A DNA stretch of 64,000 nucleotides from positions 76,495,149-76,559,148 of the forward strand of contig NC_083569.1 in assembly GCF_027579695.1 (NCBI RefSeq), written 5' to 3'. Origin of the DNA: Neoarius graeffei (lineage: Eukaryota; Chordata; Actinopteri; Siluriformes; Ariidae). The notes under the pieces were generated by a model. That model saw nothing but the letters and a program-made list of their open reading frames with translations, was not told where the DNA came from and ran no database searches. The translations under genes and the position numbers were made by a program. Within the stretch, counting starts at the first letter, position 1. Every line of letters begins with the position of its first letter. Of this stretch, positions 28,748-42,720 are shown in pieces.

Positions 28748-29122
28748 GCGGCATGGTGGTGTAGTGGTTAGCGCTGTCACCTCACAGCAAGAAGGTCCAG
28801 GTTCGAGCCCCGTGGCCGGTGAGGGCCTTTCTGTGTGGAGTTTGCATGTTCTCCCCGTGTCCGCGTGGGTTTCCTCTGGGTGCTCCGGTTTCCCCCACAG
28901 TCCAAAGACATGCAGGTTAGGTTAAGTGGTGACTCTAAATTGACCGTAGGTGTGAATGTGAGTGTGAATGGTTGTCTGTGTCTATGTGTCAGCCCTGTGA
29001 TGACCTGGCGACTTGTCCAGGGTGTACCCTGCCTTTCGCCCATAGTCAGCTGGGATAGGCTCCAGCTTGCCTGCGAACCTGTAGAACAGGATAAAGCGGC
29101 TAGGGATAATGAGATGAGAATG
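28748..29122 (+). mobile_element. tRNA-derived SINE, copy 11
   Basis: Full-length copy with 13-bp TSD AGTTTAAGGTGGG (28735-28747 and 29123-29135). Confidence 0.95.
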
Positions 29123-29407
29123 AGTTTAAGGTGGGTGGAGCACAGAAGCACGGCAGGCCAGAACTCAGTTCTCACAAACGCTTTTATTGCGCTTTTCAGC
29201 GTCTTACATTTAGCTCGCCCACACACATGCACACAAGTGTCAAGGTTGGGGGAGAGCTCCCTTCCTCTGCTCTCCCTCTCCTCTTATTGAGGTATTTCAC
29301 TCACGTGACCAAGTCATGTGACGCTGCCATTTTGGACGGCACGGCTCGAATCAGTTTGAATGCGAGGAAGGCGACAAACGAAAAACATAAAAGAAAAAGG
29401 AGCGAGA

Positions 29408-29751
29408 TGCAGAAAACACCTTCACTATCCAGCGACGTAGGGCATTTACAGGGCGAGCAGAGGGAGAGGGATTTGCAAAAATTGAGGTTAGCAGGCTTAG
29501 AGAACGACGTTTACCTGCTTCCACCAGGATTGTTCACTGACGTACGGAAGTACACGAAGCCCTCGTCTTTACCTGACTTCGGCCCACATGATCTGTATAC
29601 CTATGTCGTTAAAAACCCATCGCCATACACAGGTATTGATCTGAAAGCGTATACGAGTTTGGATACCTACAAATATTTTGTGTCAGGCTGGGTAACATGC
29701 CTACATCAGCGGGTCGTCCCTGGAGCTGGTGGTCGCCATCTTATTACAGCT
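29408..29751 (+). CDS. First exon of a SWIM/YqaJ-type transposon protein
   Basis: From ATG 29408 the frame reads MQKTPSLSSD, then LENDVYLLPPGLFTDV, YTKPSSLPDFGPHDLYTY, and KYFVSGWVTCLHQRVVPGAG GRHLITAK, ending at a good donor AAG|GTTTGT (29751). Many fish and invertebrate transposon proteins have an N-terminal block DLxxYLV...AYxxFxxGWV...V, followed by a SWIM zinc finger and a YqaJ-like nuclease domain. The block here matches that front part. No SWIM or nuclease exon lies in this element, so the product would be truncated. The family call is from memory. Confidence 0.5.
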
Positions 29752-30063
29752 AAGGTTTGTTCACATTTTCATTTACTTTTGGTCCTCAGGATAAACAAAA
29801 TGTTATTAAATGTCATTGAAATAACTTCTTAGTCTGTTGAGACATGGCCCGTTATAAATTTGCTGTTACCAGGCAATGACCAAGAACTGTATTATTAGGG
29901 TCGGTGTAGTTGTAGCAGTGTATTAGCAGCTAGCTGTTAGCACTAGCTAATGTCAACAACATCGTAGCTAGTATGTTACTGTAGCAATGTTTACGTTCAG
30001 TCATTTGGATGACTGTTAAAACCTTTCAGTCTCAAGTTTTTCCTTTACTGGATTTACTAGTTT

Positions 30064-30415
30064 ACTGAGCCATCGCGCGCTCTCCGCCCGAGCCCGGAGC
30101 CATCGCGCGCTCTCCGGCCGAGCCGGGAGCCATCGCGCGCTCTCCGGCCGAGCCCGGAGCCATCGCGCGCTCTCCGGCCGAGCCCGGAGCCATCGCGCGC
30201 TCGCCGGCCGAGCCGGGAGCCATCGCGCGCTCTCCGGCCGAGCCCGGAGCCATCGCGCGCTCGCCGGCCGAGCCGGGAGCCATCGCGCGCTCTCCGGCCG
30301 AGCCCGGAGCCATCGCGCGCTCTCCGGCCGAGCCCGGAGCCATCGCGCGCTCTCCGGCCGAGCCCGGAGCCATCGCGCGCTCTCCGGCCGAGCCCGGAGC
30401 CATCGCGCGCTAGCT
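30064..30415 (+). repeat. 30-bp GC-rich minisatellite, about 11.5 copies
   Basis: The unit is GGAGCCATCGCGCGCTCTCC followed by GGCCGAGCCC. It varies at a few sites (TCTCC or TCGCC, AGCCC or AGCCG). It encodes a repeated APGSAGERAM decapeptide on the minus strand, but with the 30-bp period this follows from the repeat and does not show a gene. It contrasts sharply with the AT-rich surroundings. Confidence 0.97.
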
Positions 30416-30741
30416 CAGTAAACTAGTAAATCCAGTAAAGGAAAAACTTGAGACTGAAAGGTTTTAACAGTCATCCAAATGACTGAACGTAAATATTGCT
30501 ACAGTAACATACTAGCTACTATGTTGTTGACATTAGCTAGCTTGCCGTCCAAAATGGTGGACACCGGGGCGTCACGTGACCCTGTGACGTCAGGTGAAAT
30601 ACCTCAATAGGGCATGGTCGCTGGGGAAGGCACACAAACACAGGTTAATTCCCATCAAGTGCAGTGATTCTGCCACTTACCTTCCCTGACTCCGCCCTCC
30701 ATTCACAGACCGACGCTTGACCACGCCCCCGCTGCCACAGA

Positions 30742-41204: not shown

Positions 41205-42720
41205 TTATTTTATACCTATATGTTGATAATAGTAATATTTCTCAATCAGCTGTCAGGTTATAGTCCAATGAAAATCCATGACCTTGAGTTTGACATTTCA
41301 AAGTCATTCAAGGTCAAAGTAATGGTGCCAAATGAAAGCCCATATGGCACTTCCTATAATTTGATAATGGTAAACATCTGTCTACCATCAATCGTTTTTA
41401 ACTTATAGCCCTCTGAAAATCCATGACCTTCAGTTTGACCTTTCAGGGTCACTCAAAGTCAAAGATCATGATGCCAAATGAAAGGCCATATGGTAGTTCC
41501 TATATGCTCATAATAGTAAACATTTGTCTATCGGCAGCCGTTTTTGAGTTATAATGGAAAATCTGTTATTTTGACTGAAATGTTGACCTTTCCGGTGACC
41601 TTGACCCGATTACCCCCAAAATTTAATCAGGTAATCTACAGACCATTGCCCACCTACACTGAAAATTTGAATTCAATCGGTGCAACCGTCTAGACCAGAC
41701 CTGGGCATTGTACGGCCCCAGGGTCACATTTGGCCCTTTGTCTGGCCCTTTGCACACCATATGATGCTGCAATGCTTTTATTTTGAAGGCCTCTGGGTTT
41801 TTTTCTTTTTTTTATTTGTGGACGTTCGTACATTCGTGTGCATGCGTATGCATCATCCTTGTTACTGTTTACATGAGATGCGGGTTAGCTGCTAGCCCTC
41901 AAAAATGTGGTAACTGGACAACAACCAAATAGAAATAAAACAGAGAACTTGTATAAAGTTGATTAAATGCTGCTCTTTGAAATACTGCAAAAAACATGTA
42001 CATTTTCAGTGCTGTAATGTAAAGAATGTTAAAAATGAAATAATGATATTATATTTGGCCTGCTCTACATTTTCATAGCCTAATCAAAACCAGACAATTT
42101 ACTGTTGTTTTAACAAAGTTAAGTTGAGCAGAGTTAAGTTCAGACTATTGGTTCGGCCCTCCACAACAGTCCAAGTTTTTCATGTGGCCCCTTGGGAAAC
42201 TTAATTGCCCAGCCCTGGTCTAGATGCTAGATTGTTAACAGACAGACACAAACAAACAAATAAACAATGTCAAAGGTCATGATGCCAAATGAAAGCCTAT
42301 ATATGACTTCCTATATGTTGAGAATGATAAACATCTCTCTATCTCTAACTGTTTTCAAGTTATAATGGAAAATATGCAAATTTTATCAATGACCTTGATC
42401 CCCTGACATTTGACCCCAACTGCTAAAAAAAACTATGAGAGATACCCCATCATGTAGCATATCAATGGAAGCAGAATTGAAAGATGAACATTGTGGAATT
42501 GGTTTGAAGTAAATATGATGACTATGAAGGAAGATATCACGAAAAAAAACAATTTTGATGTTTTGGTGACCTTGACCTTGACTGGATGACCCTCAAAATG
42601 TTGGAGGTTCTATTTGAGACCAATGCCCATCTATCCTGAAAGTTTCATGAAGATTGGTCCAGCCATTTTCCCATAATGTTGCTAACAAAAAAGAAACAAA
42701 AAAACAAAGAAACCCCACCA
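41205..42720 (+). repeat. Dispersed repeat with TGACCTTTGACC blocks and about 144-bp subrepeats
   Basis: A unit containing CCATGACCTTGAGTTTGAC, ATGGTGCCAAATGAAAGCCC and TAGTAAACATCTGTCTA occurs at about 41267, 41411 and 42267. The same kind of sequence continues to 42720 with GGTGACCTTGACCTTGACTGG. No ORF. A hAT-type MITE at 41696-42217 splits it. Confidence 0.65.
41696..42217. mobile_element. hAT-type MITE
   Basis: Ends CAGACCTGGGCATTGTACGG and, inverse, CAGGGCTGGGCAATTAAG. The TSD is 8 bp with one mismatch (GTCTAGAC 41688-41695, GTCTAGAT 42218-42225). No transposase. Confidence 0.8.

What the first reader, a model, noticed from the sequence alone, without database searches (positions are those of the whole stretch)
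29283..30603. TIR element combining a coding exon, a long inner palindrome and a GC minisatellite in the loop
TIRs (TTGAGGTATTTCAC, TA flanks) enclose a first exon with a SWIM/YqaJ-like front block, then two roughly 130-bp inverted arms around about 11.5 copies of a 30-bp GC-rich unit. The right half lacks the exon, so the structure looks like a rearranged or captured element. The combination of palindrome, loop minisatellite and transposon exon is unusual and could be a fold-back replicating form or a recombination hotspot.
Basis: partly seen in the sequence, partly recalled or inferred. Interest (0 to 1): 0.75.

Follow-up and report, generated by a model that had tools for sequence, protein, structure and literature searches.

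The report
Non-autonomous transposon with hypervariable palindrome tip
This is one of many non-autonomous copies of a DNA transposon that carry a leftover first exon and an internal palindrome whose tip holds different short tandem repeats in different copies, so it is an ordinary mobile element with an unusually informative interior.

Summary
The structure is real and mobile. The element spans 29288-30606 with an AT target duplication. It holds an exon homologous to the front of YqaJ-type transposon proteins, intron, a 137-bp arm, 11.5 GC-rich 30-bp units, and the inverted arm joined to the right terminus. Of 35 exact terminal-repeat pairs fetched from the first 30 Mb of the same contig, 16 have this layout, 7 are shortened and 12 share only the ends (my sorting); the one of those 12 read in full carries a THAP exon. 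Empty sites fix the duplication as AT, not TA. These traits point to the ISL2EU group; the cognate DDE transposase was not found. Exon variants match neutral expectation. Loops hold arrays of about five unit types, some of them related, one present in both orientations. On a tree built without the loop, both orientations of that unit fall at more than one well-supported place. Best reading: a deletion and fold-back derivative of an ISL2EU transposon, moved in trans, with minisatellites arising repeatedly at the palindrome tip.

The parts
29286..29287 (.). left copy of the 2-bp target-site duplication (AT)
   Evidence: 45 of 48 distinct sites are AT/AT; two empty sites keep a single AT
29288..29342 (+). 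left terminal inverted repeat (TGAGGTATTTCAC) and subterminal block
   Evidence: main left-end matches 93-100% identical in the sampled copies
29407..29754 (+). first exon (116 codons) homologous to the N-terminal block of ISL2EU YqaJ-type proteins; GT donor at 29755 inferred by motif and by the same position in relatives
   Evidence: neutral variant pattern
29755..29942 (+). part of intron 1 before the arm
   Evidence: 95-99% identical in the 16 sampled copies of the layout
29943..30079 (+). left inner arm (intron 1 sequence)
30067..30411 (+). GC-rich minisatellite, 30-bp unit x 11.5, at the palindrome tip; its ends overlap the arms
30404..30540 (-). right inner arm, inverted copy of intron 1 sequence
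30541..30606 (-). right terminus, joined to the arm at a short CTA microhomology (by eye)
30607..30608 (.). right copy of the AT target-site duplication

Best explanation
A non-autonomous DNA transposon, most likely of the ISL2EU group of the PHIS superfamily. Inferred history: an autonomous element with a YqaJ gene reading in from the left end and a THAP-DDE transposase gene reading in from the right end lost its interior; in one derivative an inverted copy of part of intron 1 was joined to the last ~65 bp of the right end, making an internal palindrome. Shown: the derivative exists in many copies with AT target duplications, and its exon varies neutrally in the sample. Inferred: transposase supplied in trans moves it by cut and paste. 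Shown: the palindrome tip is GC-rich, is itself palindromic in the short forms examined, and carries arrays of different units and lengths in different copies. Inferred: replication slippage or gap repair across the hairpin tip duplicates tip segments, so minisatellites arise and change there repeatedly.
For: TIR pattern (up to 2 mismatches) 21,712 + 22,048 against 12,412 + 12,298 for the reversed control. 16 of 35 fetched exact TIR pairs have the full layout, 14 of these 16 with at least one match to the window's unit. Empty sites CAGCAGGGAATAGGCTATGAAC (14 of 15; the fifteenth has AATT) and TCGCCTCATCTATACGCTCTTGCC (16,668 at up to 1 mismatch, control 0) fix the AT duplication. Class C copy L019 carries a THAP exon at the right end (PF05485: larger piece E 1.5e-8, smaller piece E 0.12, below cut-off); 6 of the 12 class C copies are among the 150 scored hits of its larger piece. 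A decayed relic at C2:125.5 Mb has exon 1 at 57-61% aa identity, YqaJ (E 1.3e-7) and a convergent uninterrupted THAP exon next to a right TIR. Two other YqaJ loci tested have a convergent DDE_Tnp_4 (E 1e-54, 4.1e-51). Exon variants 12 synonymous / 23 nonsynonymous / 1 stop against a neutral 0.33/0.64/0.03. Arrays in 35 of 46 distinct-site loops; the L014/L044 unit is 9 edits from the L064/L071 unit on the same strand, 1 on the opposite strand. On a 43-copy tree without the loop, well-supported branches force at least 2 changes each for these two array types. Duplicated insertions L025/L035 (58, 115 bp) and L038/L040 (233, 263 bp) differ in loop length.
Against: The cognate intact element and its DDE domain were not found, so trans-mobilisation is inferred. 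TIRs start TGAGG, whereas PMC4482050 says ISL2EU TIRs usually start GG; its target is A|AT|T, while here T outside on the left (36 of 45) and A on the right (40 of 45) are commonest. The left TIR of the relic was not found in the piece fetched. The slippage or gap-repair step was not observed. Four unit groups are 6-8 edits from the main group, closer than the nearest of 300 shuffles (9), so they are related and not wholly separate inventions. Exchange of loops between copies could also scatter array types on the tree; most of its forks are weak (4 of 40 inner branches starred). L041/L043 have equal loop length and L032/L036 identical loops. The count of the arm-terminus junction never returned.
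Confidence: 0.85

Rival explanations
1. A classical foldback element (Galileo/Tetris type) in which the long inverted arms are the functional termini and the tandem repeats carry transposase binding sites that aid transposition.
For: Inverted arms, tandem repeats and a THAP-bearing relative resemble Tetris/Galileo as described in PMC4079207 (section 19). L071 is a full inverted dimer of the left half.
Against: The repeats sit in the loop, not in the terminal repeats. The left arm lies about 650 bp inside the left end. The unit shares no more sequence with the TIRs than shuffled units do (longest shared word 5 nt; 251 and 298 of 300 shuffles reach it). Copies without an array exist at AT/AT sites, e.g. 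L054, L055, L067.
Confidence: 0.06
2. Exon 1 is kept for function, for example a truncated protein that represses or helps transposition.
For: Open in 10 of 13 C1-sample copies; donor-like GT retained in the window copy.
Against: Variant classes match neutral expectation. With mean divergence of 1.1% an open frame is expected from youth alone. Class C lacks this exon and is also common (12 of 35). Power is limited: 36 variants. In the larger set of 42, chosen partly by protein match and so biased, synonymous changes are more frequent (23 of 51).
Confidence: 0.06
3. The minisatellite was captured or formed once, and unit types differ by later mutation, copy-number change and exchange between copies.
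For: 23 of 35 arrays belong to one unit group, and four other groups are closer to it than shuffles. The main array type is clustered on the tree (7 changes, shuffled mean 14.5). Capture was proposed for miDNA4 in Xenopus (PMC12628747 passages).
Against: One unit occurs in both orientations, with both orientations inside one well-supported clade (L044, L064) and each again elsewhere. Single-unit and unit-free loops that look like precursors exist. The class B and L066 units are as far from the main unit as shuffles.
Confidence: 0.2

Closest known systems
ISL2EU group of the PHIS (PIF/Harbinger-ISL2EU-Spy) superfamily (PMC4482050, PMC9179366; passages read)
   Same: AT target duplication with A/T on both sides; YqaJ-type exon; THAP exon in a sister class; relatives in this genome with convergent YqaJ and DDE_Tnp_4
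   Different: non-autonomous; TIR begins TGAGG rather than GG; target mostly T|AT|A; internal palindrome and tip minisatellite are not mentioned in the passages read
Tandem-repeat-bearing MITEs (miDNA4 and Xstir in Xenopus, via PMC12628747 passages; BrickBuilt in Porphyromonas gingivalis, PMC4596501 abstract)
   Same: short non-autonomous element with inverted ends and an internal array of variable copy number
   Different: here the array sits at the tip of an inner palindrome made from a transposon intron, and several unit types, one in both orientations, occur at that position
Foldback elements Tetris/Galileo (PMC4079207, abstract and section 19)
   Same: inverted arms plus tandem repeats; THAP transposase for Galileo; array copy number differs between near-identical copies
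   Different: arms are internal; repeats are in the loop and not in the terminal repeats

Membership tests
ISL2EU | 5'-AT-3' target duplication within an A/T flank | tested here: met
   45 of 48 distinct sites AT/AT, all 45 with A or T on both outer sides; empty sites
ISL2EU | ORF with YqaJ exonuclease domain | tested here: inconclusive
   only the upstream exon is present; homologous stretches lie near the YqaJ domain in 13 of 30 loci and in the relic
ISL2EU | transposase with DDE, HTH and THAP domains | tested here: inconclusive
   THAP exon in class C and in a relic; no DDE with these TIRs found; DDE convergent with YqaJ in two other loci
ISL2EU | TIR usually begins GG (a tendency, not a rule, in PMC4482050) | tested here: not met
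   TIR begins TGAGG
Foldback (FB/Galileo/Tetris) | long terminal inverted repeats that contain the tandem repeats | tested here: not met
   ends are about 13 nt exact beyond the AT (about 39 nt imperfect); long arms are internal; array is in the loop
Non-autonomous (MITE-like) DNA transposon | many TIR-bounded copies with target duplications and no complete transposase | tested here: met

The most novel reading that the evidence does not exclude
The tip of a mobile palindrome is a recurrent birthplace of minisatellites. Within one young transposon family the same few dozen base pairs have repeatedly produced GC-rich arrays, including one unit in both orientations, so the many near-identical copies form a natural replicate series for how minisatellites start and grow at hairpin tips.
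Probability: 0.45. Interest if true: 0.62.

Novelty: new variant of a known kind. Interest (0 to 1): 0.45.

Why it matters
How minisatellites are born is hard to study because most arrays are seen only after they have grown. Here one insertion family offers many homologous tips in states from no unit to about 30 units, with precursor-like forms and opposite orientations. Slippage, gap repair, capture and loop exchange can therefore be compared directly. It also links an inner palindrome in a non-autonomous transposon to a THAP/YqaJ transposon lineage in the same genome.

Tried and rejected
Target palindrome: several flanks looked palindromic by eye; tested on 45 sites with shuffled pairing, no excess in any of six ranges (lowest P 0.21). 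Transposase-binding motif in the unit: no sharing with the TIRs beyond shuffles. Arm homogenisation: 5 variants shared by both arms of an element (one in the dimer L071), 29 left-only, 23 right-only, in 40 elements, arm-diagnostic columns excluded; weak at most. C1:22.96 Mb as the autonomous copy: it is a copy of the window's class in the intron of another YqaJ gene. Left TIR of the C2 relic: not found within the 760 bp upstream of its exon 1. Phage records gave 3 hits for the exon protein, E 4 to 5. Viral contigs gave no confirmed relative of the exon and no exact TIR match. Other fish could not be searched with these tools. Pfam gave no hit for the exon alone. Rows dropped before counts: duplicates at one site and the window's second fetch (L045); 5 loci without a clear TIR pair; only the 43 copies with over 600 of 658 nt aligned. 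Papers: PMC9179366, PMC4482050, PMC9659126 and PMC12628747 passages; PMC4079207 outline with abstract, and section 19; PMC4596501 outline with abstract; all others as search listings only. By title and start of abstract none of those listings showed this combination; the full texts were not read. Repbase was not searched.

Full report
What is there. Inverted ends of 16 nt lie at 29285-29300 and 30594-30609, inner arms of 137 nt at 29943-30079 and 30404-30540 with 97% complementarity, and 11.5 copies of a 30-bp GC-rich unit at 30067-30411. Arms plus loop fold as one long hairpin with DNA parameters (-263 kcal/mol; 100 shuffles -113 +/- 5).

It is a mobile unit. The window lies in a 2.34-Gb genome. 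The 14-mer TIR with up to 2 mismatches occurs 21,712 and 22,048 times on the two strands, against 12,412 and 12,298 for the reversed control. The first 100 exact places, all on contig C1 up to 30.3 Mb, contain many facing pairs 0.6-2 kb apart. I picked 35 facing pairs by eye from that list and fetched them. By the BLAST map I sort them as follows. 16 have the window's layout (class A; in L014 the exon has a gap), 14 of them with at least one match to the window's unit. 7 are shortened forms with a truncated exon and left arm (class B). 12 share only the ends (class C). Thirty loci picked by best exon match, one being the window itself, hold both arms in 28 of 30. The exon protein gave 20,277 first-look candidates, of which only 150 were scored, so copy number stays rough. 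A 26-nt core of the unit occurs 2,506 + 2,345 times at up to 2 mismatches, control 0. Of the 8 exact arrays listed up to 30.3 Mb of C1, 7 lie inside an exact TIR pair and 1 lies about 0.9 kb after an exact left TIR.

Ends and target. Empty versions of two occupied sites are CAGCAGGGAATAGGCTATGAAC (14 of 15 places; one has AATT) and TCGCCTCATCTATACGCTCTTGCC (16,668 places at up to 1 mismatch, control 0). Both show that AT is duplicated and that the element begins TGAGG. Of 48 distinct sites 45 have AT on both sides, all 45 with A or T outside it; the next base is G or C in 33 (left) and 37 (right) of 45. The element is therefore 29288-30606.

Which family. The exon is 34-48% identical to stretches in 13 of 30 YqaJ loci of this genome. 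Two such YqaJ loci tested, L074 and L098, carry a convergent DDE_Tnp_4, with HTH in L074; these two are not among the 13. L081, which is among the 13, also shows a convergent frame similar to that of L074 by eye. Class C copy L019 carries a THAP exon at the right end, interrupted by an insert with 8-bp direct repeats (by eye). The two pieces match consecutive parts of Pfam THAP, the larger at E 1.5e-8 and the smaller only at E 0.12, below its cut-off. The larger piece hits 6 of the 12 class C copies among its 150 scored matches. At C2:125.505-125.512 Mb a decayed relic has exon 1 at 57-61% aa identity, YqaJ (E 1.3e-7) and an uninterrupted THAP exon reading the other way, beside a right TIR 92.5% identical to the window's. 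Its left TIR was not found in the piece fetched and no DDE frame was evident by eye. PMC4482050 (passages) gives AT duplications, a YqaJ ORF and a DDE/HTH/THAP transposase as ISL2EU traits. The match is good, but the cognate DDE was not found and the first bases differ from the usual GG, so I file this as a probable non-autonomous ISL2EU derivative.

How the palindrome arose. The right arm is an inverted copy of intron 1 joined about 65 bp from the right end. Class C reads AAGCTACATAC where the window reads AAGCTAGCTAATG; arm and terminus share CTA at the join (by eye). A template switch during repair of an excision gap would do this; that step is inference. At four alignment columns the majority state differs between left and right arms, each majority being held by 21-32 of 40 copies, which fits one palindrome formed before the spread. 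L071 is a complete inverted dimer of the left half, so an inverted join has happened at least once more.

What the tip does. Loops range from 51 to 1,048 bp. Of 46 distinct-site loops 35 hold an array with a unit of at least 20 bp, a few with only about two copies. Grouping units at 5 edits or fewer gives 8 groups (sizes 23, 4, 2, 2 and four singles). I count about five types: the main 30-mer, the class B unit, a 29-mer in each of two orientations, and the L048/L066 unit. Against my reading, four groups are only 6-8 edits from the main group on one strand or the other, below the minimum of 9 in 300 shuffles, so they share a source. The L014/L044 unit is 9 edits from the L064/L071 unit on the same strand but 1 on the opposite strand. 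On a tree of 43 copies built without the loop, well-supported branches force at least 2 changes for each of these two types, and L044 and L064 fall in one well-supported clade (98/95). The main type is clustered (7 changes, shuffled mean 14.5). Only 4 of 40 inner branches are well supported, and loop exchange between copies is not excluded. Eleven loops that I chose as short or array-poor are each more self-complementary than 200 shuffles; their ends continue the arms, which adds to this. Duplicated insertions differ in loop length in two clear cases: L025/L035, 58 and 115 bp, aligned flanks 99-100%; L038/L040, 233 and 263 bp, flanks 95 and 100%. L041/L043 have equal length with small differences, L032/L034 differ by 4 bp and L032/L036 are identical. 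Slippage or gap repair across a hairpin tip explains this best.

Exon 1. In 13 distinct C1-sample copies, 36 variants split 12 synonymous, 23 nonsynonymous, 1 stop; the neutral expectation under my mutation weights is 0.33/0.64/0.03. Ten of 13 are open and mean divergence from the majority is 1.1%. With the protein-selected copies added (42 in all) the split is 23/27/1, but those copies were picked for protein similarity. The exon is most simply a passenger in a young family.

Open points. The junction count did not complete by the tool. Three insertions at one nucleotide of an abundant repeat (L011, L033, L037; two orientations, two classes) exceed a uniform WATW expectation (P 5e-8), but much less so if only the same hexamer counts (P 0.025; rough, target pool scaled from the window). 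At another site four class C and two class A copies share one target and orientation, which could be repeat hits or interior replacement. The species was not identified and other fish were not examined. I raised the odds of the single-origin rival from 0.15 to 0.2 because of the unit distances, and left the others.

Noticed in passing
L011, L033, L037 (C1:1.77, 25.92, 27.06 Mb): Three insertions of different class or orientation at the same nucleotide of a repeat with 16,668 empty copies: a possible local target hotspot.
   Followed up: partly
L028-L031 versus L038, L040: Four class C and two class A copies occupy the identical target in the same orientation in duplicated sequence, with 15 empty versions elsewhere: repeat insertion or interior replacement.
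   Followed up: partly
L019, about 449-1122: The THAP exon of this class C copy is interrupted by an insert flanked by 8-bp CCGGTTTC repeats (by eye); several other class C copies align across it, so the interrupted form itself spread.
   Followed up: partly
L104 and L095 (C1:22.959-22.964 Mb): A copy with a longer loop palindrome lies in reverse in the intron of another YqaJ gene.
   Followed up: partly
L071 (C18:66.457 Mb): Complete inverted dimer of the left half: terminus, exon, intron and arm on both sides of a 29-bp-unit array.
   Followed up: partly
window 28777-29283: A repeat just left of the element gives translated stretches also seen in L076, L095 and L106, so it looks like a common interspersed repeat.
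   Followed up: no
window 41258-41530: Two copies of a 146-bp unit at 83% match.
   Followed up: no
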